Assembly: GCA_947488905.1 (NCBI GenBank)
Contig: CANLBJ010000003.1
Coordinates: 248,001 to 312,000, forward strand
Direction: 5' to 3'
Origin: Ulvibacter algarum
Lineage (GTDB): Bacteria > Bacteroidota > Bacteroidia > Flavobacteriales > Flavobacteriaceae
Length of the DNA: 64,000 bases
The notes below the pieces were generated by a model, which made no database searches, was not told the origin of the DNA, and saw only the letters and a list, made by a program, of their open reading frames with translations. The translations under genes were made by a program, and so were the position numbers. How positions within the stretch are numbered: position 1 is the stretch's first letter; every line of letters begins with the position of its first letter. Shown here in pieces: positions 1,421-64,000 of this stretch.

Positions 1421-2320
1421 ATGTCTTCTTCAAAAAGATTAACAAAAGCCTATACAGAAGCAAAGCGCATCGCCTTTGATGACGACTCTAAGTTTATCAT
1501 GTTTAGCGATTGTCACAGGGGAGATAACAGCTTTGCAGATGACTTTGCAAACAATAAAAACATTTATTACCACGCCTTAAAACATTATTACAAAGAAGAT
1601 TTCACGTATTTTGAATTAGGTGACGGAGATGAGCTATGGGAAAACAGAAGCTTTAAATCTATTCTTGAAACACATAAGAACGTCTTTGATTTGATGCAAC
1701 TCTTTTATAAAGATGACCGCCTTTTTAGACTTGTAGGCAACCATGACATGGTTTATCTCAATGAAAGCTATGTAAAGAAAAACCTATACTCCTACTTTAA
1801 TAAAGTAACTGGATGCGAAGAGCCTTTGTTTCCGGGGATCACTTTTCCTGAAGGGATTGTGCTTGAACATAAAACCACAAATCAAGAAATCTGCTTAATA
1901 CACGGCCATCAAGCTGACTGGTGGAATTATGTTGCATGGAAATTTAATCGTTTTATGGTACGAGTCTTATGGAGACAGCTTCAAATTTTTGGAATTGGCG
2001 ACCCAACGAGTCCTGCAAAAAACTACCTCGAACTCATAAAAATAGAGCGAAAAACTAAAAAGTGGATCACAGATAATAATAACCTCTTTACTATAACTGG
2101 GCACACACATCGTCCTAGATTTCCTGAGCCGGGAGACATTGCTTATTTTAATGATGGCAGTTGTGTACATCCAAGAAGCATTACAGGGCTAGAGATAGAA
2201 AATGGAGCTATATCATTAATTAAATGGCATATTTCTACTTCGGAAAATGGAACGCTTCAAGTAATTCGCACTTTATTAGAAGGACCCCAAAAATTGATTA
2301 ACTACAAAACCGAATCTTAA
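1421..2320 (+). CDS. Calcineurin-like metallophosphoesterase
   Basis: A 299-aa protein with the ordered metallophosphoesterase motifs: SDCHRGD (residues 29-35, D-x-H), GDGDELWEN (GDxxD-like), GNHDMV and GHTHRPRF. These residues bind two metal ions and hydrolyse a phosphoester. The spacing and the 'ELWEN' box recall the UDP-2,3-diacylglucosamine pyrophosphatase-like branch, but the true substrate is unknown. No signal peptide is seen, so it should be cytoplasmic. It is followed 27 nt later by the SGNH hydrolase gene on the same strand and could be cotranscribed with it. One copy of the 9-mer TTTCCGAAG (minus orientation) lies in its 3' part. Confidence 0.82.
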   Translation: MSSSKRLTKAYTEAKRIAFDDDSKFIMFSDCHRGDNSFADDFANNKNIYYHALKHYYKEDFTYFELGDGDELWENRSFKSILETHKNVFDLMQLFYKDDRLFRLVGNHDMVYLNESYVKKNLYSYFNKVTGCEEPLFPGITFPEGIVLEHKTTNQEICLIHGHQADWWNYVAWKFNRFMVRVLWRQLQIFGIGDPTSPAKNYLELIKIERKTKKWITDNNNLFTITGHTHRPRFPEPGDIAYFNDGSCVHPRSITGLEIENGAISLIKWHISTSENGTLQVIRTLLEGPQKLINYKTES

Positions 2321-2347
2321 TCAAGGTTCTCCCCTACATTATATTTT

Positions 2348-3034
2348 ATGAGAAAATCAATTTACTTATTTTTTATATTTAGTATCGCTTTAAGCTACAA
2401 CTCAATCGCACAACAAAGCGAGTCATTTTCATATCTAGCCTTAGGCGATAGTTATACAAAAGGAGAAGGGGTTTGTGACACATGCTCATTTCCGAAGCAA
2501 TTAACAGCAGCCATTGAAGAGGGTTTTAATAAGAAAGTAAAACTGAATGTAATTGCAGAAACAGGCTGGACAACTTCAAACTTAAAAAACACACTAGAAT
2601 ATGCAGATTTAGGAGACAACAATGATTTAGTCACTCTAATGATTGGCGTAAACAACCAATATCAAGGATTGTCATACTCAAAGTTTAAAAGAGAATTCCC
2701 GAAAATTATTGACCAAGCAATTGCCGCAGCTCAAGGAAACCCTAGGAAAGTAATTGTTTTATCTATTCCAGATTATGCCTATACCCCAAGCACTTATGGT
2801 GCCGACAATCAAAAAAAGGTAACCAAAGATATTGATAAATACAACGAGTGGATCTCATTTATCACCAACAAGAGAGGTGCTTATTATTTTAACATCACAG
2901 ATCTTACAAGACTAGGCATTGCAGACCCAACACTTGTAGCTAAAGACGGCTTACATATATCTAAAAAAGCCCACGAAAGATTTGCTGATAAGCTGTACCC
3001 TACTGCAAGAAAGATCTTAAAGTATGAAAACTAG
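2348..3034 (+). CDS. Secreted SGNH/GDSL-family hydrolase
   Basis: A 228-aa protein with an N-terminal signal peptide (about residues 1-21, ending ...YNSIAQ). Block I is ALGDSYTKGEG (nucleophilic Ser), block III is IGVNNQ (G-x-N-D position altered to N-N), and block V is KDGLHIS with the catalytic D-x-x-H. This makes it an esterase or lipase-like enzyme, probably periplasmic, with unknown substrate. It follows the phosphoesterase gene by 27 nt. A second SGNH protein is encoded at 59.4 kb, but the two differ in the block I residues (GDS here, GES there). Confidence 0.83.
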   Translation: MRKSIYLFFIFSIALSYNSIAQQSESFSYLALGDSYTKGEGVCDTCSFPKQLTAAIEEGFNKKVKLNVIAETGWTTSNLKNTLEYADLGDNNDLVTLMIGVNNQYQGLSYSKFKREFPKIIDQAIAAAQGNPRKVIVLSIPDYAYTPSTYGADNQKKVTKDIDKYNEWISFITNKRGAYYFNITDLTRLGIADPTLVAKDGLHISKKAHERFADKLYPTARKILKYEN

Positions 3035-3070
3035 ATTGAGATTGACAAGTATTAATTTAAGCAGCTTAGA

Positions 3071-3403
3071 CTAATCTTCTGCTGGAGCTAAAGTAAGTTT
3101 CATCTCGTGCAATGCATCTGTTATAAAGAGCTGACAACCTAACCTACTACTTTCTTTTACGTGAAAAGCCTCTGCAAGCATCGCTTCTTCATCATAGCCC
3201 ATCTCTGGCATCTCATTATCACTTTCTATATAACACTGACAAGAAGCACACATTGCCATACCACCGCAGATACCAATGGTACCTTCTGGAGCCAACTCAT
3301 AAGAGCGAATGACTTCCATCAAATTCATATTCATATCTGTAGGAGCCTGCACATCGTGAGTCACTCCTTCTCTATCTGTAATATGTAAGGTAATGTCTTG
3401 CAT
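3071..3403 (-). CDS. 2Fe-2S ferredoxin, adrenodoxin type
   Basis: A 110-aa electron carrier. The cluster ligands follow the vertebrate/bacterial adrenodoxin pattern: C-x5-C-x2-C in ICGGMAMCASCQC and a distal Cys in RLGCQL. Its ATG overlaps the reductase stop codon by one nucleotide (TAATG type). The two are therefore very likely translated together, with the reductase as electron donor. The downstream electron acceptor is not evident; the nearby Fe-S assembly genes make a role in cluster biogenesis possible, which is inference. Confidence 0.9.
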   Translation of the reverse strand: MQDITLHITDREGVTHDVQAPTDMNMNLMEVIRSYELAPEGTIGICGGMAMCASCQCYIESDNEMPEMGYDEEAMLAEAFHVKESSRLGCQLFITDALHEMKLTLAPAED

Positions 3404-4455: not shown

Positions 4456-4563
4456 ATTTCAACTCCGCTCAATATGCGGTACTTTTAACACCCTTAATGT
4501 TGGGTAAATTTTATATTTCTAAGCAAATGTATTTAAAGAAATATTCACATTAAATGACAAAAA

Positions 4564-4824: not shown

Positions 4825-5947
4825 TACATCCTGCCATCGTTGTTATTTTTATCGCTTCTGTCGCAGGTAAATCTTTATTTCTTTTTACTGTTTGCTCTAC
4901 AACATCTCTTGTGATTGCTGTAAATGCTTCTGAAATAGGACTACCGTCTTGTAATGCTGCTGGATGCCCAACATCTCCTGCTTCACGAATGCTCTGTACT
5001 AATGGAATCTCACCTAAGAAAGGAATTTCAAGATCTTCTGCAAGGTTTTTCCCTCCGCCATTTCCGAAGATATAATATTTATTGTCTGGAAGCTCTTCTG
5101 GTGTGAAATAAGACATATTCTCTACCACACCTAAAACTGGAACATCTATATTTTCTTGTCTAAACATAGCTACACCTTTACGTGCGTCTGCAAGAGCAAC
5201 CGTCTGAGGCGTACTCACAATAACCGCTCCCGTGATAGGTAACGATTGCATGATACTTAAATGAATATCACCTGTTCCTGGCGGTAAATCGAGTAACATA
5301 AAATCAAGCTCTCCCCAATCTGCATCAAAAATTAATTGATTTAATGCCTTTGAAGCCATAGGTCCACGCCATATTACGGCTTGATTAGGTTTTGTGAAAA
5401 ACCCAATAGAAAGCACTTTAATCCCATAGTTTTCTACGGGCTTCATTTTACTTTTTCCATCTACAGTAACAGATAATGGACGCTCATTAAAAACATCAAA
5501 CATTAACGGGATAGAAGGCCCATAAATATCTGCATCAAGAATACCCACTTTAAAGCCCATTTTTGTTAATGAAACAGCCAAGTTTGCAGTAACAGTAGAT
5601 TTACCTACACCACCCTTACCAGATGCTACAGCAATAATATTTTTAATACCTGGAATTGCTTTTCCTTTTATAAGATTAGGGTTGTCTGGTTTTGCTGGTG
5701 CTTCTACTTTTATATTGACTTGCACTTTTGCATCACTAGATACTTTATTCTTGATAATATCTATAATATCTTTTTCTGCCCTTTTCTTAATATGCATCGC
5801 TGGCGTTGCAATTTTAAGGTCTACGACTATTTCGTCTGCAAAAGTCATCACATTTGTAACGGCTCCACTATCTACCATATTTGCACCCTCTCCAGCTACA
5901 GTGATGGTTTTCAGCGCATTAAGTATAGCTTGTTTTTCAATTTTCAT
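4808..5947 (-). CDS. mrp: Mrp/NBP35-family P-loop ATPase, Fe-S cluster carrier
   Basis: A 379-aa protein with an N-terminal MIP18/DUF59 domain (about residues 1-90). A deviant Walker A ASGKGGVGKSTVTANLA near residue 108 and the switch DLPPGTGD follow. It carries and inserts Fe-S clusters. The ENMSYFTPEELP loop lacks the CxxC that E. coli Mrp has in this place. I believe this cysteine-free loop is common in Bacteroidota Mrp proteins, so the cluster may be held by other residues; one Cys remains near the C-terminus (AGCSA). It overlaps the nfu gene by 17 nt. Confidence 0.9.
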   Translation of the reverse strand: MKIEKQAILNALKTITVAGEGANMVDSGAVTNVMTFADEIVVDLKIATPAMHIKKRAEKDIIDIIKNKVSSDAKVQVNIKVEAPAKPDNPNLIKGKAIPGIKNIIAVASGKGGVGKSTVTANLAVSLTKMGFKVGILDADIYGPSIPLMFDVFNERPLSVTVDGKSKMKPVENYGIKVLSIGFFTKPNQAVIWRGPMASKALNQLIFDADWGELDFMLLDLPPGTGDIHLSIMQSLPITGAVIVSTPQTVALADARKGVAMFRQENIDVPVLGVVENMSYFTPEELPDNKYYIFGNGGGKNLAEDLEIPFLGEIPLVQSIREAGDVGHPAALQDGSPISEAFTAITRDVVEQTVKRNKDLPATEAIKITTMAGCSAAKN

Positions 5948-5975
5948 ATTGCTTATTTAGACTATTTCTAAAGTA

Positions 5976-12687: not shown

Positions 12688-13668
12688 ATGACTCCATCAA
12701 TTTCGTCCATATTTTCAATTAAGAATAAAACTGATTTTAGCTCGGTGGCACTTCAGATCTTTAAGTATCAATACAATTATTGTAAACCCTACAAACAGTA
12801 TTGCGATCTTCTTAAAGTTGATGTTTCTGCAATAGATACCATAGAAAAAATACCATTTCTACCTATCACATTTTTCAAACAAAAGGAGATTATTTCAAGC
12901 GATAAAGTTTCCGAAGTAATATTTACAAGTAGCGGCACTACTGGCACTGTTACTAGTAAACATTTTGTTACAGACACAGCTATCTATGAAGAGAGTTTTA
13001 AAAAAGGCTTCTCACACTTCTACGGAAATGTGCAAGATTTTACCATACTAGCTTTATTGCCTTCCTACCTTGAACGTGAAGGATCATCTCTTGTGTATAT
13101 GGTAGACAGCCTCATTAAAGACAGCAACACTAATGACAGCGGCTTTTACCTAAACAACCTAGATGCTCTTATTGAAAAACTAGTCACGTTAGAGTCTAAA
13201 GGAAAAAAAATACTGTTAATTGGGGTTTCTTATGCTTTACTTGACTTGATTGAAAAAAGAAAATTTCAGCTAAAAAACACCATCGTGATGGAAACCGGCG
13301 GAATGAAAGGTCGTAGAAAAGAACTTATAAAACCTGCCTTACATGCCATATTAAAAGAAGGATTTGGCATCACAAATATCCATAGCGAATACGGGATGAC
13401 AGAGTTACTCTCACAAGCTTACAGCAAAGAAGATGGTGTCTTTTCTTGCCCACCCTGGATGAAAATTTTAACAAGAGATACAGAAGACCCACTCACCTTA
13501 ATAAAAAACAAGACCGGCGGTATCAATGTAATAGATCTTGCAAATATATATTCTTGCTCGTTTATCGCTACACAAGACCTTGGCAATGTGAAAAATGATG
13601 GTAACTTTACTATAATGGGCAGGTTTGATGACAGCGACATACGAGGCTGTAACTTAATGGTTTTATAA
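12688..13668 (+). CDS. LuxE-like acyl-protein synthetase/acyltransferase
   Basis: A 326-aa protein resembling LuxE, which activates a carboxylate as acyl-AMP and passes it to a Cys. The motif IFTSSGTTGTVTSKH (about residues 78-92) is the adenylate-forming phosphate loop, and IHSEYGMTELLSQAY is the matching downstream motif. No other lux genes are present, so this is not bioluminescence; the acyl group and acceptor are unknown. It is separated by 2 nt from a transglutaminase-like membrane protein gene, and a DUF350-like gene follows, so the three probably form one operon. Confidence 0.78.
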   Translation: MTPSISSIFSIKNKTDFSSVALQIFKYQYNYCKPYKQYCDLLKVDVSAIDTIEKIPFLPITFFKQKEIISSDKVSEVIFTSSGTTGTVTSKHFVTDTAIYEESFKKGFSHFYGNVQDFTILALLPSYLEREGSSLVYMVDSLIKDSNTNDSGFYLNNLDALIEKLVTLESKGKKILLIGVSYALLDLIEKRKFQLKNTIVMETGGMKGRRKELIKPALHAILKEGFGITNIHSEYGMTELLSQAYSKEDGVFSCPPWMKILTRDTEDPLTLIKNKTGGINVIDLANIYSCSFIATQDLGNVKNDGNFTIMGRFDDSDIRGCNLMVL

Positions 13669-19687: not shown

Positions 19688-20427
19688 TAGATATCGTATC
19701 GATTAAAAAGACTCTTGATCTTCATTTTTAAAACTCCAAAAATAGCTTCGGAAATAATCCCGGCACTCATTTTTGATTCTCCTTTTGTTCTATCTGTAAA
19801 AATTACAGGCACTTCTACTATTTTAAACTTACTTAAATGCGCTTTAAACTTCATCTCTATCTGAAAGGCATATCCTAGAAAGCGAATTTTATTTAGATTA
19901 ATTGTCTCTAGCACATTTCTTCTATAACAAATAAACCCTGCAGTGGTATCGTGTATATTCATTCTTGTTACAAAACGCACATACCTTGATGCCCCCCAAG
20001 AGAGTAAAACTCTACTCATAGGCCAATTTACCACATTAACTCCCGTTACATATCTTGAACCAATGGCAAGATCATTACCATCATTATGACAAGCATTATA
20101 CAACCTAATTAAATCTTTTGGGTTATGAGAAAAATCTGCATCCATTTCAAAAACATATGCATAAGTTCTCTCTAACGCCCACTTAAAACCAGCAATATAC
20201 GCTGTACCAAGACCTTGCTTGCCTTTGCGCTTTAATAAATGTAAGCGTTCTGGAAACTCACTCATCAATCCCTCAATAAAAACACCCGTTCCATCTGGCG
20301 AATTATCATCTACTACAAGCATATGAAAGTCCTGATCTAAAGCAAACACAGAACGCACCAAGGCATCGATGTTCTCAATTTCATTATACGTTGGGACAAC
20401 TATTACCGCGTTAATGGTACTACTCAT
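19687..20427 (-). CDS. Polyprenol-phosphate mannosyltransferase-like glycosyltransferase (GT2)
   Basis: A 246-aa GT-A enzyme of the dolichol-phosphate mannose synthase (DPM1) family. Motifs are VVVPTYNEIENID, VVDDNSPDGTG and the DxD-like EMDADFSHNP. No C-terminal GtrA-like membrane domain is present, as in short bacterial forms. It likely moves a sugar from a nucleotide donor to polyprenyl phosphate for later periplasmic glycosylation; a GT87-like membrane protein at 46.5 kb could use such donors (inference). It is the first gene of the operon with pyrC, with a promoter box 6 nt upstream. Confidence 0.88.
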   Translation of the reverse strand: MSSTINAVIVVPTYNEIENIDALVRSVFALDQDFHMLVVDDNSPDGTGVFIEGLMSEFPERLHLLKRKGKQGLGTAYIAGFKWALERTYAYVFEMDADFSHNPKDLIRLYNACHNDGNDLAIGSRYVTGVNVVNWPMSRVLLSWGASRYVRFVTRMNIHDTTAGFICYRRNVLETINLNKIRFLGYAFQIEMKFKAHLSKFKIVEVPVIFTDRTKGESKMSAGIISEAIFGVLKMKIKSLFNRYDI

Positions 20428-20533: not shown

Positions 20534-21187
20534 TTGGATTTCTTAGAACGTCATAGCACATATTTAGACTGGATCACGCTTGTTTTTCTAGGCTGCATCA
20601 TATTGATGACAATCGCAAAATTGTTATTCCCTAAACGCTTTGAATCGTTTATTTATTTGCCTCTAACTACAAAATATTTTTTAGTGCAAGGAAAAAACGA
20701 TGAGCTAACCCACGGGTTTAATGTCTTATTATTTATAGTTCAATTACTTTCTATATCCTTTTTCATATACCTTTTTTTAGTAGAAATAGGTTATGGTAAA
20801 GAACAAAGGCCGTGGTTACTATACATTCAAATTTGCTCTCTATATTTTGTGTTTATTGGTTTTAAGTTATCTGTAGAAAAAATCATTGGAAATGTTTTCA
20901 ATATGGAGCGAATAATGAACTTTTACCTCTATCAAAAGCTTACATATAAAAACTATATTGGCATTTTAATACTCATTTGCAACATTTTAATGGTGTATTC
21001 ATTCGGGAATAACAAAACTGGACTCCTTGTTATTATTGCGATAAGCGCAATTTTAAACGGAATAGGACTATTACTGAGTCTTAAAACTTTCCGAAGTATT
21101 ATTATACCTAATTTCTTGTATTTTATTTTGTATCTTTGCGCTCTTGAAATTGCCCCCTACATCATCCTTTACAAAGCGGTAATCTAG
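20534..21187 (+). CDS. DUF4271 membrane protein
   Basis: A 217-aa protein with about six transmembrane helices, matching the Bacteroidota family DUF4271. Start is the TTG at 20534; the next in-frame ATG would remove the first helix. No catalytic residues are apparent. It lies 27 nt before hemD. DUF4271 beside uroporphyrinogen-III synthase is an arrangement I recall in other flavobacteria, so a role linked to heme synthesis or cytochromes is possible but unproven. Confidence 0.78.
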   Translation: MDFLERHSTYLDWITLVFLGCIILMTIAKLLFPKRFESFIYLPLTTKYFLVQGKNDELTHGFNVLLFIVQLLSISFFIYLFLVEIGYGKEQRPWLLYIQICSLYFVFIGFKLSVEKIIGNVFNMERIMNFYLYQKLTYKNYIGILILICNILMVYSFGNNKTGLLVIIAISAILNGIGLLLSLKTFRSIIIPNFLYFILYLCALEIAPYIILYKAVI

Positions 21188-22091: not shown

Positions 22092-23702
22092 TTATTTCAA
22101 CTCTGGTGGTCCACCTGCTAAGATTTCTGCATTAGCATAATCTTCAAACTGCTTAAAGTTATTTTTAAATGACGCTGCTAGTTTATGTGCAGTTTCATAA
22201 TAACCTTTGTCGTTGTTCCAAGTAGCTCTTGGGCTTAACACCTCTGTAGGTACATTAGGACAAGTTCTAGGTTGTGCTAGACCAAATACAGAATGAACGT
22301 GATAGTTTCCTTTATTTGCTGCATCAAGACTTCCATCCATTGCCGCAGTAATCATCGCTCTAGTATATTTTAATTTCATTCTAGAACCTACTCCATAGGG
22401 ACCTCCAGTCCAACCTGTGTTAACAAGCCATACGTTTACTCCAGAATCTTTCATTTTCTTACTCAACATCTCTGCATATCTCGTAGGATGAAGCGGCATA
22501 AATGGTGCTCCAAAACAAGCAGAAAAACTTGGCATTGGCTCAGTTACTCCCGCCTCTGTTCCTGCCACTTTTGCTGTATAACCACTAATAAAGTGATATG
22601 CAGCTTGACCTGGAGTCAGTTTTGAAATAGGAGGCAGTACACCAAAAGCATCTGCTGTTAAGAAAAATATGTTTTTAGGATTTTCACCTATAGAAGGAAC
22701 TTTAATGTTATCTATATGATAAATAGGATAGCTTACTCGCGTGTTTTGAGTAATAGAGATATCTGCAAAATCTACTACACCATTGTCATCCATCACTACA
22801 TTTTCTAGAATCGCCCCTGGCTTAATAGCGTTATAGATGTCTGGCTCATTTTCTGCTGAAAGGTTAATCACTTTAGCATAACAGCCACCTTCAAAATTGA
22901 AGACTTTGTTATCTGCCGTCCACCCATGCTCATCATCTCCTATTAGCTTACGAGCTGGATCTGCAGATAATGTTGTTTTCCCTGTTCCTGAAAGACCAAA
23001 GAATATAGCCGTCTCACCATTATCACCCACATTTGCAGAACAGTGCATAGGCAATGTGTTCTTCTGTACAGGTAAAATAAAGTTAAGAGCTGAGAAAATC
23101 CCTTTTTTGATTTCACCAGTATAACCAGTTCCACCTATTAAAGCAATCTTTCTTGTAAAGTTTAAAATAGCAAAGTTATGCTGGCGCGTTCCATCTAATT
23201 CTGGATCTGCCATAAAACTTGGAGCATTAACAATTAACCACTCAGGGCCAAAATTTTCTAACTCCTCCTCAGAAGGTCGCAAGAACATATTATGAGCAAA
23301 CATATTTGCCCATGGGTGCTCGTTAATAACTCTTATATTTAATTTATAATCAACATCTGCACAAGCATAACTGTCTCGTACATAAATCTCTTTATCAGAA
23401 AGGTAATCTGTTACCTTATTATATAAAGCATCAAATTTGTCTGGCGAAAAAGGAATATTTATATCCCCCCACCACACTTCATCTTTAGTAACATCATCTT
23501 TTACAATGAAGCGATCCATTGGAGAACGACCTGTAAACTCACCTGTGTTTACCGCAAGCGCGCCGCTACTGGCCTCTTTTCCTTGTCCTTTAGATATTGT
23601 TTCGTTGTGAAGCGCTTCCGAAGAAAGCTGATATTTCACTTTAGCATTCTTGATGCCATAATTGTCGACCGAAATCGTTTTAGTAGTTTGGTTTTGAGCC
23701 AT
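22092..23702 (-). CDS. pckA: Phosphoenolpyruvate carboxykinase (ATP)
   Basis: It converts oxaloacetate and ATP to phosphoenolpyruvate for gluconeogenesis. Motifs are the kinase P-loop GLSGTGKTTLSADP, the preceding NVGDNGETAIFFG, the metal-binding DDEHGW and the C-terminal FGAPFMPLHPTRYAEML. I start at the ATG at 23702 (MAQNQTTKT), giving 536 aa, the family's usual size. The 18-codon upstream extension (Cys-rich) has no counterpart in the family and contains the promoter box. It is a single gene, convergent with hemD. Confidence 0.95.
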   Translation of the reverse strand: MAQNQTTKTISVDNYGIKNAKVKYQLSSEALHNETISKGQGKEASSGALAVNTGEFTGRSPMDRFIVKDDVTKDEVWWGDINIPFSPDKFDALYNKVTDYLSDKEIYVRDSYACADVDYKLNIRVINEHPWANMFAHNMFLRPSEEELENFGPEWLIVNAPSFMADPELDGTRQHNFAILNFTRKIALIGGTGYTGEIKKGIFSALNFILPVQKNTLPMHCSANVGDNGETAIFFGLSGTGKTTLSADPARKLIGDDEHGWTADNKVFNFEGGCYAKVINLSAENEPDIYNAIKPGAILENVVMDDNGVVDFADISITQNTRVSYPIYHIDNIKVPSIGENPKNIFFLTADAFGVLPPISKLTPGQAAYHFISGYTAKVAGTEAGVTEPMPSFSACFGAPFMPLHPTRYAEMLSKKMKDSGVNVWLVNTGWTGGPYGVGSRMKLKYTRAMITAAMDGSLDAANKGNYHVHSVFGLAQPRTCPNVPTEVLSPRATWNNDKGYYETAHKLAASFKNNFKQFEDYANAEILAGGPPELK

Positions 23703-45213: not shown

Positions 45214-46371
45214 ATGAGAATTCTAATTGCCCTTTTATTTATTTCTGTTTTAGCTAGTTGCAAAAATGATACTTCGACTACGCTCAGTAAGCCGAGTAAT
45301 AGCACTTCGGAAATATCAAACACCGAAACTAGCGCTCCTAAACAAAGAGAAGCTGTAATTGATACCGAAACAAAAGACACACTTATTTATCCAGAAGAAG
45401 GTCATTTTAAAAACATACGCCAGGTGACTTTTGGAGGTGATAATGCAGAAGCTTATTGGAGTTTTGATGATAAGCAATTAGTTTTTCAATCTAACTATAA
45501 AGAGTGGGGAGTGGAGTGTGACCAAATGTTTTTAATGAATGCTGACCAGACATTTAAAGACTCACAACCGCCTATGATCTCAACGGGTAAAGGAAGAACT
45601 ACTTGTGCTTATTTCTTACCAGACAATAAACATTATGTTTACGGGAGCACACACCTTGTTGACGATAATTGCCCAGAAGTTCCACTACGTAAAAACGGAA
45701 ACTATGTTTGGCCAGTCTACGATAGCTTTGACATATTTGTAGCAGATCTTGAAGGTAATATCACAGCACAATTAACAACAGAACCTGGTTATGATGCAGA
45801 AGCTACTGTATCGCCTCAAGGAGATAAAATAGTATTTACCTCTACTAGAAGTGGCGACTTAGAATTATACACAATGAATATAGATGGTAGTGGCGTAAAG
45901 CAAATCACTTACGAACTTGGTTATGACGGTGGTGCATTTTTCTCACCAGACGGAACAAAATTAATTTTCCGTTCTTCTCGCCCAAAAACTGAAGAAGAAA
46001 TAAAGAAATACAAAGATTTACTTGCCGAAGGATTAGTAGAACCAGTTGACATGGAGCTCTACATTTGTGATGCAGACGGTAGTAACTTAAAGCAATTAAC
46101 TAATCTAGGTAATGCAAACTGGAGTCCTTTTTTCCACCCAAGCGGAAACAAAATCTTGTTTAGCAGTAATCACGAAGCAGAACGCGGTTTCCCTTTTAAC
46201 CTATACTTAATTGACCTTGACGGAAGAAATCTAGAGCGTGTTACTCACGGAGAAACTTTTGATGCTTTTCCTGTTTTCAGCAACGATGGTAAATACTTAG
46301 CATTCTCATCTAACCGTAATAACGGTGGCGGTAGAGATACTAACCTTTTTATTGCTGAGTGGCAAGATTAA
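45214..46371 (+). CDS. TolB-like beta-propeller lipoprotein
   Basis: A 385-aa lipoprotein starting at the ATG at 45214; the frame is open for 76 codons upstream, but that part is antisense to the M28 gene. The lipobox Cys is in VLASCKND (about residue 16). A Ser/Thr-rich linker to about residue 50 is followed by PD40/WD40-like TolB repeats (DAEATVSPQGDKIVFTSTRSG, GGAFFSPDGTKLIFRSSRP, WSPFFHPSGNKILFSSNH, DAFPVFSNDGKYLAFSSNR). It is probably a periplasm-facing sensor or scaffold. Part of the linker (STTLS) is encoded by a copy of the dispersed repeat core. Confidence 0.85.
   Translation: MRILIALLFISVLASCKNDTSTTLSKPSNSTSEISNTETSAPKQREAVIDTETKDTLIYPEEGHFKNIRQVTFGGDNAEAYWSFDDKQLVFQSNYKEWGVECDQMFLMNADQTFKDSQPPMISTGKGRTTCAYFLPDNKHYVYGSTHLVDDNCPEVPLRKNGNYVWPVYDSFDIFVADLEGNITAQLTTEPGYDAEATVSPQGDKIVFTSTRSGDLELYTMNIDGSGVKQITYELGYDGGAFFSPDGTKLIFRSSRPKTEEEIKKYKDLLAEGLVEPVDMELYICDADGSNLKQLTNLGNANWSPFFHPSGNKILFSSNHEAERGFPFNLYLIDLDGRNLERVTHGETFDAFPVFSNDGKYLAFSSNRNNGGGRDTNLFIAEWQD
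45272..45287 (+). repeat. Copy of the dispersed TCGACTRCGCTC repeat inside a CDS
   Basis: CTTCGACTACGCTCAG is identical to the inner part of one arm of the repeat at 32709-32779 (reverse orientation). It lies in frame within the lipoprotein linker, just after the lipobox, where sequence constraint is low. Confidence 0.75.
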
Positions 46372-46494: not shown

Positions 46495-47931
46495 GTGAGT
46501 CTTTTTAAACAATATAAAAACCTAACGATCCCAATAATTGGGACCATGGTTTTTTACATACTATTTTCTTATTTCACAGAAAGGAGCGACTTCTTAAATC
46601 TCCTTCTCCTCTACTCTGGATTATTCTATTGTGCTTGGCGTATTATTAAAGCGTCCCAATTTAACTTTTGGGCTTTAGCAGGAATAGGTGTGTTTTTTAG
46701 AATTTTGTTCTTACCAGCTATCCCTAATTTGAGTCAAGACTTTTACAGGTTTTTATGGGATGGGCGATTGTTAATACAAGGTGTAAACCCCTATACCGTT
46801 ACACCCCAGTTATTCAACACAGACCTCTCGACTGCGCTCGAGGTGACATCTGGTAAAACTGTAAATCAGGCTAGAGAATTAATAGCAGGAATGGGCGAGT
46901 TAAACGCAAGTCACTACAGCAACTATCCTCCCATTAACCAACTCTGTTTTGCTATTGCCGCACTGTTTGCAAAAAACTCTATTGTAGGTTCTGTAATTGC
47001 ATTACGTATTTTAATTATAGCAGCAGACTTAGGTATTCTTTACTTCGGAAAAAGGCTCTTAGAAAAACTTAATCTTCCCGTTAAAAATATCTTCTGGTAT
47101 TTTTTAAATCCTTTTATCATTATAGAATTGACCGGTAATCTTCATTTTGAAGGAGTGATGCTGTTCTTTGTAGTCTGTGCATTCTATCTTTTACATAAAG
47201 GCAAGTGGTTTTGGGCGGCAGTATTATTAGGCGTTTCGGTTTCTGTTAAGCTATTACCGCTTTTGTTTTTACCTATGTTTTTTAAATATCTACTAACAAA
47301 CGACAAGGGTAAAACTTCAATATTTGGATTGCACTTCGATAAACTTAGCGTGATAAAAATGGTGCTGTTTTATGCGGTTACTTTAAGCACAATTTTAATC
47401 ACCTTTGCTCCTTTTCTGTCACAAGATTTTATAACAAATTTCGCCGCAACTATTGGCTTATGGTTTCAGAATTTTGAATTTAATGCAAGTGTTTACTATG
47501 TAATTCGCTGGATTGGCTTTCAAACTGTGGGCTGGAATATTATTGGTACCGTTGGAAAAATCCTACCTTTAATTGTAATTGCCTTTATTTTGATGCTGGC
47601 ATTTTTCCGTAGAAATACAACTACGCAACAATTAATTACTGCCATTTTACTAGGCGTGTCTTTTTACTTTTTGCTCTCTACAACGGTGCACCCGTGGTAT
47701 GTAGCAACACCATTAATTCTATCTGTTTTTACACGATATAGATTTCCTATTGTATGGAGTTTTATGGTGATATTTAGCTATTCTGCATACAGTGCAGAAG
47801 GTTTTAGCGAGAATTTAGGCTTGGTAGCAATAGAGTACATCGTTGTAATTGTGTTTGCTTTTTCTGAAATTTTCTTCGGAAATAAGCTTCAAAAATCAAA
47901 CTTCTTTTCTGTTTTTAAAGCCCCTATTTAA
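46495..47931 (+). CDS. GT87/mannosyltransferase-like multipass membrane glycosyltransferase
   Basis: A 478-aa protein starting at a GTG. About ten to twelve transmembrane helices are predicted. The first loop, DFYRFLWDGRLLIQGVNPY, carries the acidic/aromatic motif of polyprenyl-phosphate-sugar-dependent GT-C enzymes. NPFIIIELTGNLHFEGVMLF is a second typical segment. It likely transfers a sugar from a polyprenyl-phosphate donor, possibly made by the DPM1-like enzyme at 19.7 kb (inference). A dispersed palindromic element is embedded in frame near residues 108-118. Its 3' end overlaps the convergent RES gene by 8 nt. Confidence 0.78.
   Translation: MSLFKQYKNLTIPIIGTMVFYILFSYFTERSDFLNLLLLYSGLFYCAWRIIKASQFNFWALAGIGVFFRILFLPAIPNLSQDFYRFLWDGRLLIQGVNPYTVTPQLFNTDLSTALEVTSGKTVNQARELIAGMGELNASHYSNYPPINQLCFAIAALFAKNSIVGSVIALRILIIAADLGILYFGKRLLEKLNLPVKNIFWYFLNPFIIIELTGNLHFEGVMLFFVVCAFYLLHKGKWFWAAVLLGVSVSVKLLPLLFLPMFFKYLLTNDKGKTSIFGLHFDKLSVIKMVLFYAVTLSTILITFAPFLSQDFITNFAATIGLWFQNFEFNASVYYVIRWIGFQTVGWNIIGTVGKILPLIVIAFILMLAFFRRNTTTQQLITAILLGVSFYFLLSTTVHPWYVATPLILSVFTRYRFPIVWSFMVIFSYSAYSAEGFSENLGLVAIEYIVVIVFAFSEIFFGNKLQKSNFFSVFKAPI
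46823..46847. repeat. Copy of the dispersed palindromic repeat inside a CDS
   Basis: ACCTCTCGACTGCGCTCGAGG followed by TGACA shares the TCGACTGCGCTCGA core with the intergenic copy 390 nt upstream. It is in frame and encodes DLSTALEVT in an extracytoplasmic loop of the GT-C-like protein. Confidence 0.78.
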
Positions 47932-48930: not shown

Positions 48931-48962
48931 ATTGTTTTTAATTTTACTATTTCCGAAGAAAA

Positions 48963-54529: not shown

Positions 54530-55102
54530 TTAATTAGCCGTTTTGATCAATGAAGTTATGTCAATTTTCTTGACACTTTGAGCCGGTATTCCTGCAATAA
54601 GCATCCCTTGCTCTGTCATTGTTTTATTGACGACAGCGTTTGCACCAATAGCACAATTAGAGGGTATATTAATATTTCCGAAGATCTTAGCACCAGGGGC
54701 TATATAAACATTATCACCTATAATAGGTGCAGCTTCTTTACCACCAGAGGCGCCTATGTTTGTATTTGCGTGTATGCGGCAATTTTTACCAATACGGGCA
54801 TTTTTATTTACTATTATGGTTCCGTAATGCACAATAGCAAGCCCAGGCCCAAACACATTTACAGGTATTGAAAACCCTAATTTAATAGCATATTTTTCAA
54901 ACTGCAATCGCTTGTACTTATAGTAAAAACTATTAACACCGGTGTTGGTATAATACTCTAGATACCTAAGTTTTTTCTGAAATTTCCAGATAACGTTAGG
55001 CGCAAAATATTCTTTTAAAATAGAACGATTTTGAGCAAAAAGACCAAGTGAACGCCTATCTGCATCCAAATATTTTTTTAAGTCTTTCTTGCTCTTTATC
55101 AT
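54530..55102 (-). CDS. Left-handed beta-helix acetyltransferase (serine acetyltransferase-like)
   Basis: A 190-aa protein. A helical N-terminal half (about residues 1-85) is followed by hexapeptide repeats (IVHYGTIIVNKNARIGKNCRIHANTNIGA onward) with the catalytic His and the GGK motif (SGGKEAAP) of SAT-type enzymes. The protein is shorter than CysE, so the acceptor may be serine or a sugar. It lies upstream of the polyamine cluster on the same strand, 18 nt after the pseudouridine-synthase-like gene, and could be cotranscribed with the latter. Confidence 0.8.
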   Translation of the reverse strand: MIKSKKDLKKYLDADRRSLGLFAQNRSILKEYFAPNVIWKFQKKLRYLEYYTNTGVNSFYYKYKRLQFEKYAIKLGFSIPVNVFGPGLAIVHYGTIIVNKNARIGKNCRIHANTNIGASGGKEAAPIIGDNVYIAPGAKIFGNINIPSNCAIGANAVVNKTMTEQGMLIAGIPAQSVKKIDITSLIKTAN

Positions 55103-57171: not shown

Positions 57172-57296
57172 AGGTTAAATTTAATATTTTCTTCGGAAAC
57201 GTGACCTACATTAACAATTGTTTAATTAAAGTACCTTTACGAAAACTACAAAAAACTAAGCACCGTTTTACTGTGTGATTTTTGAATAAAGACCTA

Positions 57297-58636: not shown

Positions 58637-59386
58637 ATGTTTAGACATCAAGGCAAAAGCAGAACTTTAAAACACAACCTACGTATCGCTACTATCTTAT
58701 CATTTGTAGCCGGGATTGTTAACGTCACTGGATTTCTGGCTTTTAAACAACTAACCACAAATGTCACTGGCCATTTTGCTTTATTTATAAATGACGTTTC
58801 TACTTTTGAGTTCTGGAAAGGAACAATTTACTTTCTTTATATACTCTCTTTTCTTTTTGGCTCATTTACGTCAAGCTTTCTAATTGAGAAATTTAAAAAG
58901 AATAAAAAACTAAATGTCTTTGTTCTACCTACTATAATTGAATGTTTAATATTTATAGTGATAGGAATTCTAAGTAATTTCATAGCATTAAAATCTCCAG
59001 ATTTGATAGTCTGTTTATTACTTTTTGCAATGGGGCTTCAAAACTCTTTTGTCACTAAAATATCAAACGCTGTTGTACGCACCACACACCTTACAGGACT
59101 TTTTACAGATTTAGGCATAGATATCTCACAACTATTTTTTCCGAAGATATATTTAAACAGAGTAGCTTTAAAAGCAAACATTAAACTACGTACTTATATT
59201 ATTCTTTTCTTTTTTGCAGGTGGATTAACAGGTGGTTTTTTTTACTCTAAGGTTGACTTAAAGTTAAACACACTAATTATAGCTGCTGTAATTTTATTAC
59301 TAAGTTTATTTTATGATGATTTTAGATATAAGCTCATAAAAGTTAGAAGAAAATTTAGTCAAAGAAAAGACAGAATCATACGTTAA
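58637..59386 (+). CDS. YoaK/DUF1275-family membrane protein
   Basis: A 249-aa protein with six predicted transmembrane helices. ATILSFVAGIVNVTGFLAF and TTNVTGHFALFINDVS are the typical DUF1275 N-terminal segments, and LLFAMGLQNSFVTKISNAVVRTTHLTG is its conserved central part. Transport or an unknown function. It has a strongly basic C-terminal tail. It lies 16 nt before an SGNH hydrolase gene on the same strand and may be cotranscribed with it. Confidence 0.85.
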   Translation: MFRHQGKSRTLKHNLRIATILSFVAGIVNVTGFLAFKQLTTNVTGHFALFINDVSTFEFWKGTIYFLYILSFLFGSFTSSFLIEKFKKNKKLNVFVLPTIIECLIFIVIGILSNFIALKSPDLIVCLLLFAMGLQNSFVTKISNAVVRTTHLTGLFTDLGIDISQLFFPKIYLNRVALKANIKLRTYIILFFFAGGLTGGFFYSKVDLKLNTLIIAAVILLLSLFYDDFRYKLIKVRRKFSQRKDRIIR

Positions 59387-59402
59387 ATAAGAAATAGAAA
59401 TA

Positions 59403-60197: not shown

Positions 60198-60206
60198 CAA
60201 TAACAC

Positions 60207-62177
60207 TTACAAAAAGAAATCCCAAACCAAGCCAAATCTTATAAAACCATCACGATAAGGGTAACCCGGTGCAGCAAAGTGATCGTTTGTGGTTTTAAAG
60301 AGTGCATTTACATGCTCATATTTCACATAAATACGGGTCTGTCGTACTTTTGCATTGAAGAATAAATCTATCATTGGGAAACCTCCTATTTCTTGTTCGT
60401 CTTGAACATAAAACTCTCCCAGCACAGGGCTGTAAGCATCCATTTCATATTTAGGAAAATACTTAAAGGTAACTCCGGTTTGCAAATACAATGCCTTTTT
60501 AAACCAATGATCCTGGTAGTAAAGAGTGTTACGTGTTATAAAGCTAGGCACTTTAAATACGTCTGCACCACTAGACACGTTTTGATATAAAATAGTATTT
60601 GCTAATCTAAAATTTCTGTACTTAAATTCTTTCTCTAGTTTTACCTTGAGATAATCTACACGCTCTGCAGACTGAAAAGGAGTTGGTTGGCTTATAACTT
60701 CTGCTATTTCTTCTGTCGCTGGCTCTAATATTGTAGTGCCAAAATAAGTGTAGTTATCAATGCCAGAGTATGAAACATTCACATTTCCGAAGGTAGGAGA
60801 CTCAAAACCAAAATTAAGCTCTTGCGTTTTTACATTATCAAAATTGTTTTGCCAGTTATAACTTACATAATCACTCTGGTAAAGAAGCGTATTAAAATTA
60901 GGCGCCACACTATGTATTTTTAATCCCGCAACTGCTTTTATATCTTTAAGAAAAGTAAAACTGGCCTTCCCTGTAAGATAAGCTCCATCATATGGCCCAC
61001 TAATGTTTACGGCCCCTTTACCCTGTAAATCAAAACCTTTATATGTTTTTTGATAGCTTGCTCCTGCTGCTAGAATGCCTCCTTTTAGTCTATTCTCTAT
61101 TCTGCCTTCATCTAGAATAAGAACAGAGTTATAGCCATAATTAAAGTTTGTATAATCTATAAATGCCCCCACTTTACCAATGAGATTGTTGTCAAAACGC
61201 GCGTACATTTTTGTGTTAAAATTTTGCAGTCGCACTAGCTCTCTTAGGCCAGAACTCTCATATGCATCTCCATAATCATCATAAGCTGTGTCTTGTTGAT
61301 ATCTGTATTGCTTTTCTTCATACTTAAGCTCATTACCTACAGCAAGTAGCGTGTGACTCACACTATCTTGTTGTTTAATTATGTGATATTCTTGATCTAC
61401 ATAATATCTTATTCCTTGTAAAAAATTCTCTGCATCATCATAGTTTACCTCTAGTCTGCCTCTATCATTAAAATTACTATCATCACTTATGTACAAAGGC
61501 AATGCATCATCTGTAATACCACCATTTTGTCTATTAAGAATATCTTGTGCTGCTAGATGTGCTCTTAAAAAATAGCGTTTGTTTTTACTAAAATAGCTAG
61601 TGGTAAATCTAAAATTACCTGTACTAGTAAGTCTATTTTGCAAATTACCTAGAGATCGAACCCCCTTGTAGGCCAGAGAAAAATTAAACTGGCGTGATGT
61701 ATTTATTGCAAATAACCCATCTAGTTGTTGCCCTTGCTGGAAAGCTGTTTTAAAATAAAATTCTGTGAGCGGTGTAGGCACTTCATAATAAAGTATGTCT
61801 TCTACTTCCATATAATTGCGGTGCTGTGCTCTTGCTCCAAATAATGGCTTTAAATTAACGTCATCAAAAGATTTTGCAAGTTCATTGTATGGAGTCCCCA
61901 CATTTGCAAAGGGTAACAACTCAAACGTATCTTCTCTTAAATAGTTAAACTTATATTGCTTCTCTATGGTAAGTGTGGTATCTACAAAAGAGGTATCTCT
62001 ATCTGCACTAATAATCTTGTATAAGTCTATAGGTGCTTTCTTTTGTTTATTTACACCGTTTTGATAATTAGGATTATTATTTTGGTTTGTGCCTTGCTGG
62101 TTGTTATTGCCACCTATTTGCCCAAAAGAAAGTAGAGGCAAAAGTATTATTGATAAATGTAGCAAGCAGTTTTTCAT
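60207..62177 (-). CDS. Putative porin (Porin_10-like outer-membrane protein)
   Basis: A 656-aa outer-membrane protein. The signal peptide is about residues 1-19, followed by a Q/N-rich low-complexity stretch (residues 20-45). The rest is a long series of amphipathic beta-strands ending in an aromatic residue (...VWDFFL), as expected for a beta-barrel inserted by BamA. It resembles the Bacteroidota putative porin family PF14121. Solute specificity is unknown. It is a single gene between convergent and divergent neighbours. Confidence 0.8.
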   Translation of the reverse strand: MKNCLLHLSIILLPLLSFGQIGGNNNQQGTNQNNNPNYQNGVNKQKKAPIDLYKIISADRDTSFVDTTLTIEKQYKFNYLREDTFELLPFANVGTPYNELAKSFDDVNLKPLFGARAQHRNYMEVEDILYYEVPTPLTEFYFKTAFQQGQQLDGLFAINTSRQFNFSLAYKGVRSLGNLQNRLTSTGNFRFTTSYFSKNKRYFLRAHLAAQDILNRQNGGITDDALPLYISDDSNFNDRGRLEVNYDDAENFLQGIRYYVDQEYHIIKQQDSVSHTLLAVGNELKYEEKQYRYQQDTAYDDYGDAYESSGLRELVRLQNFNTKMYARFDNNLIGKVGAFIDYTNFNYGYNSVLILDEGRIENRLKGGILAAGASYQKTYKGFDLQGKGAVNISGPYDGAYLTGKASFTFLKDIKAVAGLKIHSVAPNFNTLLYQSDYVSYNWQNNFDNVKTQELNFGFESPTFGNVNVSYSGIDNYTYFGTTILEPATEEIAEVISQPTPFQSAERVDYLKVKLEKEFKYRNFRLANTILYQNVSSGADVFKVPSFITRNTLYYQDHWFKKALYLQTGVTFKYFPKYEMDAYSPVLGEFYVQDEQEIGGFPMIDLFFNAKVRQTRIYVKYEHVNALFKTTNDHFAAPGYPYRDGFIRFGLVWDFFL

Positions 62178-62268
62178 AGTCTATAATAGAATAGGCAAAT
62201 ATAAATGTTTAGATACTATTACAGAAAGAACGATGGTTTAATAGAAATCTTATTTGTAATTTGCCTTT

Positions 62269-62868
62269 GTGTTACAATTAAAAATAAATAAGTCACTTAT
62301 AGAATGCGGCACAGATGAAGCTGGTCGCGGTTGTTTATCAGGTCCTGTGACTGCTGCTGCAGTTATTTTACCAGATGATTTTTCGCACCCCTGGCTTACA
62401 GACTCTAAACAACTGAGTCATAAAAAAAGAATGGAATTAAAACCCATAATTGAAGCAGAAGCTATAAGTTTTGGCGTATGTCACGTGATGATGGATGAGA
62501 TTGATAAAATTAACATCTTAAACGCCTCTATTCTTGGCATGCATCGCTCTATTGATCAACTCACTCCTACCCCACAATTTATAGCCATAGACGGTAACAG
62601 ATTTAAACCCTATTCTAAAATACCCTACGAGTGCGTTGTTAAAGGCGACGGAAAGTTTCTGCACATTGCTGCCGCTTCTATTTTAGCAAAAACATATAGA
62701 GATATTTACATGCAAGAACTGCACGAAGAATTTCCTATGTATAACTGGCAGCAAAACAAAGGCTACCCCACAAAAGAGCATCGAGCAGCTATTAGAAAAC
62801 ACGGTTCAACACCTTATCACCGCAAAAGTTTTAGACTACTGCCAGAGCAACTTAAATTAAAAGTATAA
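62269..62868 (+). CDS. rnhB: Ribonuclease HII
   Basis: A 199-aa enzyme cleaving RNA in RNA-DNA hybrids, especially single ribonucleotides. Start is a GTG. The catalytic D-E motif is [15 protein letters not shown] (about residues 13-27). Further acidic residues are in AIDGNRFKP and [20 protein letters not shown]. It lies 92 nt from the divergent porin start, followed by a lipoprotein gene on the same strand. Confidence 0.95.
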
Positions 62869-62927
62869 GTGTTGAAAACCATCTAAAAACTTTCATATGA
62901 GAAGACCTATCTCTGCTCCTTGTTCGT

Positions 62928-62935
62928 TATTTTTG
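62928..62935 (+). promoter_or_regulatory. Putative -7 promoter box only 4 nt before an ATG (leaderless candidate)
   Basis: TATTTTTG fits TAnnTTTG, with four bases (TAGG) to the ATG at 62940. This repeats the arrangement seen at 16816. Confidence 0.5.
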
Positions 62936-62939
62936 TAGG

Positions 62940-64000
62940 ATGAAGAAGGTGTTTATTCTAGTATGGTTTACCATTATCACGTGTGTTTTTAGCTGCACAA
63001 ACAGCAAAAACTACAAAGGCCTGCCTTATGATTACCTAGGCAATGACACTACAAACATCTTAAAAGTAACCAACCCAGAGCAACTTGCACTAGACATTAA
63101 AGCTAATGATCTTTTAAACAAAACTGGCAATCCCATTTTATCATTTATAAGTACTTCGGAAATATTAAGCAACTGGAAATCGCAACATCCATTTTACTTT
63201 AGCACAAAAGATGATGGTGAGAATACAAGCATTGTGTTTACAAAAATAAAAGATACGCTCTCTTTTAAAGCAGATTCAATACCTAAAGCTATTATTGAAA
63301 ACTTCTCAATTAAAGAAAGATTGGCTCAAAAAATAGTATTAAACAAAGACTCTCTGTTTATGACAGAAAAAGATAGTGTGACTATTTTTTCTACAAGCAG
63401 GCAATCTTTGATCTCTATAGTAGAACAAAAGGAAAACCATATAGATCAAGACCTAATAAAACTACTTGAGTTTTCTAAGGACGGAGAGATTGTATCAACA
63501 GGAATAACAAGTTTATATGCTCATAACGTTTCCGAAGTAAAAAACATGAAGCGCTCTCAAGAGATGCATATTTTGCCAGACGGCATTCAAGTTTCTGGTA
63601 TCATAAAAAGTAAAGACAGCAGCCTAATAGATGTATTTAAAGGTCAAACTCCTCAAGCTAGTAAAGTTGCTGCAATTGTGCCCAGTGATTTTAATACCGT
63701 AAAAGGTTTTACGTTTTCTGACGCAGGTCTTTTAATTAAATCTCTAAAAAGATATAAAAAAGACACTACAATAACCGCGGTACACCCACTGCTAGAAACA
63801 ATAACAGAAATTGCAGAAGTTCATCTCTCAAAAGACCGCACACTCATAATGTCTAGTATAGATATGCCTCAATCACTAGCTTCTATTGATATAGATATTA
63901 AAGAGTTTGAAACTTTTAGAGACATTACTATTTATGAGAATAACATCTCTAGCTTATTAGTTGCATCTTTTGAGCCACTACTGTCTGGTTCAGACTATCC
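62940..64000 (+). CDS. Large hypothetical lipoprotein, 3' end cut by the window
   Basis: An open frame from the ATG at 62940 runs off the window end (at least 353 codons). It begins MKKVFILVWFTIITCVFSC, a signal peptide with a lipobox Cys near residue 19. The visible part is alpha/beta mixed with no recognised catalytic motif. I recall a similar large lipoprotein downstream of rnhB in other flavobacteria but know no function. Two copies of the TTTCCGAAG 9-mer lie inside it in opposite orientations. The missing C-terminus prevents further classification. Confidence 0.75.
   Translation, partial: MKKVFILVWFTIITCVFSCTNSKNYKGLPYDYLGNDTTNILKVTNPEQLALDIKANDLLNKTGNPILSFISTSEILSNWKSQHPFYFSTKDDGENTSIVFTKIKDTLSFKADSIPKAIIENFSIKERLAQKIVLNKDSLFMTEKDSVTIFSTSRQSLISIVEQKENHIDQDLIKLLEFSKDGEIVSTGITSLYAHNVSEVKNMKRSQEMHILPDGIQVSGIIKSKDSSLIDVFKGQTPQASKVAAIVPSDFNTVKGFTFSDAGLLIKSLKRYKKDTTITAVHPLLETITEIAEVHLSKDRTLIMSSIDMPQSLASIDIDIKEFETFRDITIYENNISSLLVASFEPLLSGSDY

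What the first reader, a model, noticed from the sequence alone, without database searches (positions are those of the whole stretch)
2238..63537. The 9-mer TTTCCGAAG is strongly over-represented on both strands
By hand I count 18 copies of TTTCCGAAG plus one CTTCCGAAG. Plus-strand copies start at 2489, 5061, 12908, 21088, 35218, 48950, 54677, 59138, 60784 and 63529; the variant is at 23615. Minus-strand copies lie at 2238, 19746, 38325, 45305, 47043, 47874, 57191 and 63154. From a base composition near 36% GC I would expect fewer than one. Copies fall in all three reading frames (for example gtt-tcc-gaa-gta, tca-ttt-ccg-aag, act-ttc-cga-agt) and also in gaps, so protein constraint does not explain them. 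Flanks are usually A/T. Words that behave this way are often chromosome signals: uptake sequences, Chi-like or KOPS-like recombination sites, or nucleoid-protein sites.
Basis: partly seen in the sequence, partly recalled or inferred. Interest (0 to 1): 0.78.

Follow-up and report, generated by a model that had tools for sequence, protein, structure and literature searches.

The report
USS-like genome word in Flavobacteriaceae
A Flavobacteriaceae genome carries about 800 copies of one 9-letter DNA word with A/T-rich flanks, laid out like the self-recognition tags that Haemophilus and Neisseria use to choose which DNA to take up; our paper searches showed no such tag for this bacterial phylum.

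Summary
In detail: all 18 TTTCCGAAG copies are in the window (one coordinate off by 2). The genome holds 817 (409 +, 408 -) against 58 for the reversed control word; in 1.46 Mb read here, 361 against 3.9 expected (third-order Markov), the top 9-mer there by z-score.

It has most genomic signatures described for Haemophilus USS and Neisseria DUS: no strand bias (155:161), 4.5-fold preference for non-coding DNA with most copies still in genes, all six reading phases, a tight core in non-coding DNA (103 perfect against 51 over all 27 one-mismatch forms), slightly over-regular spacing, close inverted pairs (14 of 19), and A/T tracts about a helical turn apart. It is nearly missing from a mobile island (2 copies against ~23 expected), which carries another genome's word, GCTTTCGCGAAAGC, found at roughly 1000 sites in Dokdonia.

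Best reading: a DNA-uptake-type self-recognition word, perhaps read by a Riemerella-like uptake operon (CarboxypepD_reg outer-membrane-type protein plus DUF5689 protein) present near recA. Uptake itself is untested. Density (0.23/kb) is below USS/DUS, and the competence genes tested do not separate word-rich from word-poor genomes.

The parts
2238..2246 (-). TTTCCGAAG copy, genic; not conserved in the G008 alignment
2489..2497 (+). TTTCCGAAG copy, genic; not conserved in the G008 alignment
5061..5069 (+). TTTCCGAAG copy, genic; conserved at the aligned place in same-genus G008
12908..12916 (+). TTTCCGAAG copy, genic; not conserved in G008
19746..19754 (-). TTTCCGAAG copy, genic; conserved in G008
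21088..21096 (+). TTTCCGAAG copy, genic; not conserved in G008
23615..23623 (+). CTTCCGAAG, one-mismatch form
35218..35226 (+). TTTCCGAAG copy, genic
38325..38333 (-). TTTCCGAAG copy, genic
45305..45313 (-). TTTCCGAAG copy, genic in the simple ORF set
47043..47051 (-). TTTCCGAAG copy, genic
47874..47882 (-). TTTCCGAAG copy, genic, with a TTTCAGAAA-type word just downstream
48950..48958 (+). TTTCCGAAG copy, intergenic, with A/T-tract flanks
54675..54683 (+). TTTCCGAAG copy, genic (reader gave 54677)
57191..57199 (-). TTTCCGAAG copy, intergenic
59138..59146 (+). TTTCCGAAG copy, genic
60784..60792 (+). TTTCCGAAG copy, genic
63154..63162 (-). TTTCCGAAG copy, intergenic in the simple ORF set
63529..63537 (+). 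TTTCCGAAG copy, intergenic in the simple ORF set

Best explanation
TTTCCGAAG is the core of a DNA-uptake-type self-recognition word (USS/DUS-like) of this Flavobacteriaceae genus and some relatives. In intergenic copies the extended form is roughly TTTTAAAnnTTTAAnA-TTTCCGAAG-nAAWAA, with a probable weaker second tier ATTTCAGAA. Proposed working: a competent cell's surface receptor binds the core in double-stranded DNA, helped by the A/T tracts; DNA bearing the word is taken up and recombined in preference; over time this bias makes perfect copies accumulate by point mutation wherever genes tolerate them, on both strands, most densely in intergenic DNA. Shown here: over-representation, tight core in non-coding DNA, flanks, strand neutrality, non-coding preference, inverted pairs, partial conservation with turnover, near-absence from a mobile island. 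The candidate reader, also inferred, is an operon of a CarboxypepD_reg protein (presumed beta-barrel) and a DUF5689 protein about 4 kb from recA; it looks like the pair essential for transformation in Riemerella anatipestifer, matched here by domains and adjacency only, not by direct sequence comparison.
For: 817 copies against 58 control; 361 against 3.85 expected. No replication-strand bias, 155:161 of the 316 copies that could be assigned. Non-coding 103 of 361 copies in 8.1% of the DNA (0.87 against 0.19 per kb). In non-coding DNA 103 perfect against 51 summed over 27 one-mismatch words, 32 of those 51 at one position. Spacing CV on C1 0.877 against 0.995 sd 0.062 (1.8% of 3000 simulations as regular). 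14 of 19 neighbour pairs under 150 bp are in the -/+ order (p 1e-5); the three closest fold as hairpins. Flank tracts in intergenic and, more weakly, genic copies. Conserved at 8 of 19 aligned sites in two relatives against 292 of 4042 comparable 9-mers. Nearly missing from the mobile island, with the like in two other genomes. PMC1626085 (passages) lists strand neutrality, some regularity, opposed pairs, non-coding preference and over-strong consensus as shared USS/DUS traits, and A/T segments about one helical turn apart for Pasteurellaceae. ComEC, DprA, RecA and the CarboxypepD_reg/DUF5689 pair are present. R. columbina prefers its own DNA in competition (PMC7965970 section 16).
Against: No uptake or transformation was measured. 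Density is 0.23 per kb genome-wide, not the ~1 per kb of USS/DUS. ComEC (33 of 35), DprA (34 of 35) and DUF5689 (32 of 35) occur in word-poor genomes too: six word-poor same-genus genomes keep ComEC 6 of 6, DprA 6 of 6, DUF5689 5 of 6. One word-rich genome (G053, Salinimicrobium marinum) has no DUF5689 hit and only a 68-position ComEC match with four stops. In this genome ComEC is not near the DUF5689 pair. The family's uptake machinery is not the pilus/ComP system known to read DUS. In word-rich G022 and G040 the A/T flanks look weak or absent by eye. Control words TTTCAGAAA and TTTCAGAAG/TTTCTGAAG show part of the same flanks. Overall, 361 perfect copies are outnumbered by 467 one-mismatch copies. 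Spacing regularity is weak: over the first 800 kb it was only 1.5 sd below random.
Confidence: 0.6

Rival explanations
1. A nucleoid-protein or chromosome-organising site: a cytoplasmic protein binds the word and its A/T tracts about every 4 kb to shape the chromosome.
For: Genome-wide, strand-neutral, slightly over-regular spacing, A/T-tract flanks, near-absence from foreign DNA.
Against: Core is tight in non-coding DNA (103 perfect against 51 one-mismatch). Rich in only 11 of 199 sampled family genomes by my cut-off and in 4 of 10 same-genus relatives, which is odd for a housekeeping architecture signal. 258 of 361 copies lie in genes.
Confidence: 0.17
2. A Chi-like site that modulates the AddAB/RecBCD enzyme during recombination repair.
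For: Short, frequent (1 per 4.3 kb, similar to the recalled E. coli Chi density), present in core DNA and nearly missing from a mobile island.
Against: No bias to the leading strand, 155:161; strong non-coding preference, inverted pairs and structured A/T flanks are not Chi traits (recalled). Not rich in most sampled family genomes.
Confidence: 0.1
3. Remains of a small repeat family or of terminators: the word spread as part of hairpin elements.
For: 19 close pairs, 14 in hairpin order; the three closest fold well.
Against: At most 38 of 361 copies are in such pairs; beyond the A/T pattern copies share no longer sequence; 258 copies lie in genes in all six phases.
Confidence: 0.05
4. Composition or codon artefact.
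For: The second-tier word ATTTCAGAA and the one-mismatch forms TTTCAGAAG/TTTCTGAAG are largely in one codon phase.
Against: 94-fold over third-order Markov, six phases, strongest in non-coding DNA (102 against 0.5 by a second-order model).
Confidence: 0.01

Closest known systems
Haemophilus/Pasteurellaceae uptake signal sequence (USS)
   Same: 9-bp core, hundreds of copies on both strands without bias, non-coding preference, strong consensus, inverted pairs, A/T-rich tracts spaced about a helical turn.
   Different: Unrelated core sequence; about a quarter of the density; A/T tracts on both sides here; different phylum and, by the Riemerella model, different outer-membrane machinery; function not tested.
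Neisseriaceae DNA uptake sequence (DUS) and its dialects
   Same: Over-represented genus-level word, inverted pairs, different words in relatives (passages of PMC3630211).
   Different: DUS dialects are variants of one word read by the pilin ComP; here the second word (GCTTTCGCGAAAGC in Dokdonia) is unrelated in sequence, and no ComP was sought.
Chi sites
   Same: Short frequent word of the core genome.
   Different: No strand bias; non-coding preference; A/T flanks.
HIP1 palindrome of cyanobacteria (recalled)
   Same: Highly iterated short word; the Dokdonia palindrome resembles it in kind.
   Different: TTTCCGAAG is not a palindrome and has directional flanks.

Membership tests
DNA uptake sequence (USS/DUS) | Genome-wide over-representation far above Markov expectation | tested here: met
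   361 against 3.85; 817 against 58 control
DNA uptake sequence (USS/DUS) | Density near one per kb | tested here: not met
   0.23 per kb genome-wide, 0.25 per kb in the part read; ~1 per kb is stated in PMC1626085
DNA uptake sequence (USS/DUS) | No orientation bias | tested here: met
   155:161 by replication arm
DNA uptake sequence (USS/DUS) | Preference for non-coding DNA with many coding copies | tested here: met
   0.87 against 0.19 per kb; 258 of 361 genic
[quoted passage not shown]
   Met in non-coding DNA (103 against 51); overall 361 perfect against 467 one-mismatch, 221 of these at one position, 189 of the 221 coding
DNA uptake sequence (USS/DUS) | Close oppositely oriented pairs | tested here: met
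   14 of 19 pairs under 150 bp are -/+ and 1 is +/-
DNA uptake sequence (USS/DUS) | Somewhat more regular spacing than random | tested here: inconclusive
   C1: CV 0.877, 1.8% of simulations as low; first 800 kb only 1.5 sd below random
DNA uptake sequence (USS/DUS) | Flanking A/T segments at helical-turn spacing (Pasteurellaceae only) | tested here: met
   for this genome; not measured statistically elsewhere, and weak by eye in G022 and G040
DNA uptake sequence (USS/DUS) | Shared with some members of the genus or family | tested here: met
   4 of 10 same-genus relatives; 11 of 199 family genomes at >=60 copies and >=3x control, own genome included
DNA uptake sequence (USS/DUS) | Host has uptake genes | tested here: met
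   ComEC, DprA, RecA, CarboxypepD_reg + DUF5689 pair; ComF, the HHH protein and DUF1343 were not sought; not discriminating between genomes
DNA uptake sequence (USS/DUS) | Word-bearing DNA is preferentially bound, taken up or transformed | not testable with these tools
   needs an uptake assay
Chi site | Polarity relative to replication (recalled trait) | tested here: not met
   155:161
Chi site | Alters AddAB/RecBCD activity | not testable with these tools
   biochemistry needed
KOPS (FtsK-orienting sequence) | Strong strand skew pointing to dif (recalled trait) | tested here: not met
   155:161

The most novel reading that the evidence does not exclude
Several Flavobacteriaceae use uptake words with lineage-specific forms (TTTCCGAAG here; GCTTTCGCGAAAGC in Dokdonia and one other genus), read by a non-pilus outer-membrane receptor (barrel plus DUF5689 protein). 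This would be a third, independent origin of genome-wide uptake words, and the words would brand the source of transferred islands.
Probability: 0.35. Interest if true: 0.88.

Novelty: new variant of a known kind. Interest (0 to 1): 0.74.

Why it matters
Genome-wide uptake words are described in what I read only for Pasteurellaceae and Neisseriaceae (the methylated motif of Campylobacter, recalled, is another kind). A further case in another phylum, with a similar core-plus-A/T-tract design but apparently different outer-membrane machinery, would show that self-recognition in transformation evolved repeatedly and would give a handle on the unknown Flavobacteriaceae DNA receptor. It makes a direct test possible: the word and its mutants can be added to a fragment and uptake measured. 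It could also help to make Flavobacteriaceae genetically tractable.

Tried and rejected
Codon explanation: rejected for TTTCCGAAG (six phases, strongest in non-coding DNA). KOPS: rejected on strand neutrality. Correlation of the word with ComEC, DprA or DUF5689 across 35 genomes: no separation. TATCGAGAA as a third dialect: dropped; in L076 and L095 it sits in local repeats, and whole-genome counts are low in most of 33 genomes, the highest being 176 against 30 control in G046. A family-wide ATTTCAGAA word in non-coding DNA of the 80 leuS loci: 7 against 4.0, not clearly enriched; yet over whole genomes, coding included, it is 3.0- to 12-fold over control in 26 of the 28 genomes counted, mostly chosen as word-rich or same-genus, all but Dokdonia G047 and G020. 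I keep it only as a probable second tier. The palindrome cluster as a terminus or origin signal: rejected, GC skew stays negative along C3 and Pfam shows a mobile island. A structure model of the DUF5689 protein was not attempted, because it lies outside what structure prediction says it accepts. Naming the genus: not achieved; the nearest named leuS is 79% identical. Genes whose presence follows the word were not sought beyond the three families above.
Full report
Observation. TTTCCGAAG occurs 18 times in the window (10 +, 8 -), expectation 0.37; 17 of 18 coordinates were right, the copy given at 54677 is at 54675. CTTCCGAAG is at 23615. The window is C3:248001-312000 of a 3.55-Mb, 33-contig genome. 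T9SS-tailed proteins (2 of 10 scanned) and the nearest named leuS matches (all 80 listed are Bacteroidota, nearly all labelled Flavobacteriaceae or a genus of it) place it in Flavobacteriaceae; the genus is unnamed. Genome-wide: 409 + 408 copies, reversed control 32 + 26.

Statistics on 1.459 Mb (contigs C1 and C3). 361 copies against 3.85 (third-order Markov); it has the highest z-score of 46540 9-mers with ten or more copies. Genes were called by a simple longest-ORF rule, so 'coding' is approximate. 103 copies are non-coding, 258 coding: 0.87 against 0.19 per kb. Tandem, convergent and divergent gaps all have it (1.01, 0.86, 0.67 per kb), and 61 of 103 intergenic copies are nearer a gene's 3' end, against 42% of 1200 random intergenic points. 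Codon phases: 30, 70, 8 same strand, 12, 58, 80 opposite.

Strand. With replication arms set by GC skew (C1 below 400 kb and all of C3 negative, C1 from 550 kb positive; 400-550 kb left out, so 316 of 361 copies), 155 lie on the G-rich strand and 161 on the other. This speaks against KOPS and against a polar Chi.

Anatomy (core at 0 to +8). Intergenic copies (n=103) show T at -16 to -13 (0.50-0.66), A at -12 to -10 (0.52-0.63), T at -7 to -5 (0.50-0.79), A at -4, -3 and -1 (0.68, 0.73, 0.86), and A at +10 to +14 (0.53-0.80). Genic copies (n=258) show much of this in weaker form, the A stretch at -12 to -10 least. The T tracts lie about 9-10 bp apart. This resembles the Pasteurellaceae USS, where A/T segments sit about one helical turn apart (PMC1626085, passages) and A/T-tract shape affects uptake (PMC7811141, passages). 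Against specificity: the control words TTTCAGAAA (n=105) and TTTCAGAAG/TTTCTGAAG (n=69) show part of the same flanks. I read this as a weaker second tier: in non-coding DNA ATTTCAGAA occurs 66 times against 3.0 (second-order model), and it is depleted on the island (5 against 15.4).

Tightness. In non-coding DNA 103 perfect copies face 51 summed over all 27 single-mismatch words, 32 of them at the fifth base. Overall the figures are 361 and 467, with 221 of the 467 at that base, 189 of these coding. An excess of perfect copies is a named USS/DUS trait; here it holds in non-coding DNA only.

Pairs and spacing. 19 neighbouring pairs lie within 150 bp; 14 are -/+, 4 -/-, 1 +/- (p 1e-5 for 14 of 19). 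The three closest fold at -12.4 to -16.6 kcal/mol, z -2.9 to -5.2. Spacing on C1 is slightly over-regular (CV 0.877; 1.8% of 3000 simulations); on the first 800 kb it was 1.5 sd below random.

Relatives. Same genus (WTTTCCGAAG): 4 of 10 relatives are rich (G005 548, G006 381, G008 895, G009 271); six are near control level, and these six are 1.7-2.1 Mb records. Family (ATTTCCGAAG): by my reading of the table 11 of 199 genomes have >=60 copies and >=3x control, own genome included. Named genomes (TTTCCGAAG; 20 searched, one of 21 not held): 6 are at least 3.9x control (UBA4166 736/100, isolate 3-490-G 467/83, Psychroserpens sp. SPM9 453/106, Aequorivita soesokkakensis 460/75, Salinimicrobium marinum 415/105, a Flavobacteriaceae MAG 292/61). 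Dokdonia has 10 against 59 and Polaribacter 7 against 31. At aligned places the word is kept in 4 of 11 (G008) and 4 of 8 (G006) cases, together 8 of 19 against 292 of 4042 9-mers with four G/C letters and a CG (p 3e-5). So sites are favoured but turn over.

A second word and the island. In Dokdonia (G047) GCTTTCGCGAAA gives 970 + 979 hits (a near-palindrome read on both strands, so roughly 1000 sites) and in G020 585 + 588. Both have few TTTCCGAAG-type words (10 against 59; WTTTCCGAAG 3 against 20). In the own genome TTTCGCGAAA is almost confined to C3:32333-118779 (21 of the 23 on C3; whole genome), 16 of them full GCTTTCGCGAAAGC. In that 86-kb stretch TTTCCGAAG occurs twice (43118, 47505) where the rate elsewhere predicts about 23; the gap between words, chosen after the fact, is 73 kb with 0 against 19.2. 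Pfam on 20 of its roughly 80 ORFs (2 without a match, several only weak) shows metal-efflux pumps, Eco57I-type methylases, a Strawberry-notch helicase, a Fic protein and a serine recombinase next to ftsZ: a mobile island. The pairing of palindrome and missing word recurs in G040 (0 against 6.5 in 60 kb) and G022 (9 TTCCGAAG against 78 in 110 kb, although the lower GC there lowers the true expectation) (limits set by eye). The simplest reading is that the island came from a Dokdonia-like background and keeps that word; an element-own signal is also possible.

Uptake genes. The own genome has ComEC at C1:955037-957100, DprA at C1:408385-409563, RecA at C1:184638-185651, and at C1:175248-180330 a CarboxypepD_reg protein followed by a protein with two DUF5689 domains. 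In R. anatipestifer such a pair (RA0C_RS04915/04920) is essential for transformation (PMC8459023, abstract and sections 18-21). The match here rests on domains and adjacency; the barrel is presumed. R. columbina prefers its own DNA, and its authors' table of the commonest k-mers lists A/T-rich words, not this one (PMC7965970 section 16). But the genes tested are in nearly all of 35 genomes, word-rich or not, and G053 is word-rich with only a ComEC remnant and no DUF5689 hit.

In print. A search for the word (236 papers, 15 listed, their titles unrelated) and searches for uptake sequences with Bacteroidetes, Bacteroidota or Flavobacteriaceae terms (3 papers; 16: none; 17: 20 of 85 listed; 49: 20 of 1480 listed; 68: none) showed no uptake word in this phylum in the listings. 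Only open-licence papers are held and long lists were cut, so this is weak evidence of absence.

Verdict. A real, strong chromosomal word with most genomic hallmarks of an uptake sequence, lower in density, in a phylum where our searches showed none; function inferred, not shown.

Noticed in passing
own contig C3:32333-118779 (loci L169-L173): Mobile island beside ftsZ with a serine recombinase and metal-efflux genes carries 21 TTTCGCGAAA (16 as full GCTTTCGCGAAAGC) and nearly lacks the host word; similar clusters in G022 C18 and G040 C5.
   Followed up: partly
G047 (Dokdonia, L039, L204-L208) and G020: Roughly 1000 and 590 genome-wide sites of GCTTTCGCGAAA; in 100 kb of G047, 28 of 38 TTTCGCGAAA lie in genes.
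   Followed up: partly
own contigs C1 and C3, non-coding DNA: Other repeated non-coding words, GACTGCGCTC (17 against 0.02) and GAAATCGAA (30 against 1.0), unexplained.
   Followed up: no
L076, L095: Repeated units containing GTATCGAGA (in L076 about 210 bp apart), a local repeat family.
   Followed up: partly
window 10877-12607: 576-aa T9SS-tailed protein; a weak DUF5689-like stretch at 11858-12346 (32.4 bits), but not listed in the Pfam scan of the whole protein.
   Followed up: no
C1:178144-180330: The DUF5689 protein has two tandem DUF5689 matches here and in G005, while G006 and G008 show one in a frame of 480-490 aa; this does not follow word abundance.
   Followed up: partly
window (GCTACTGCTACT): Nine copies of a GCTACT-type 12-mer, probably a local low-complexity repeat.
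   Followed up: no
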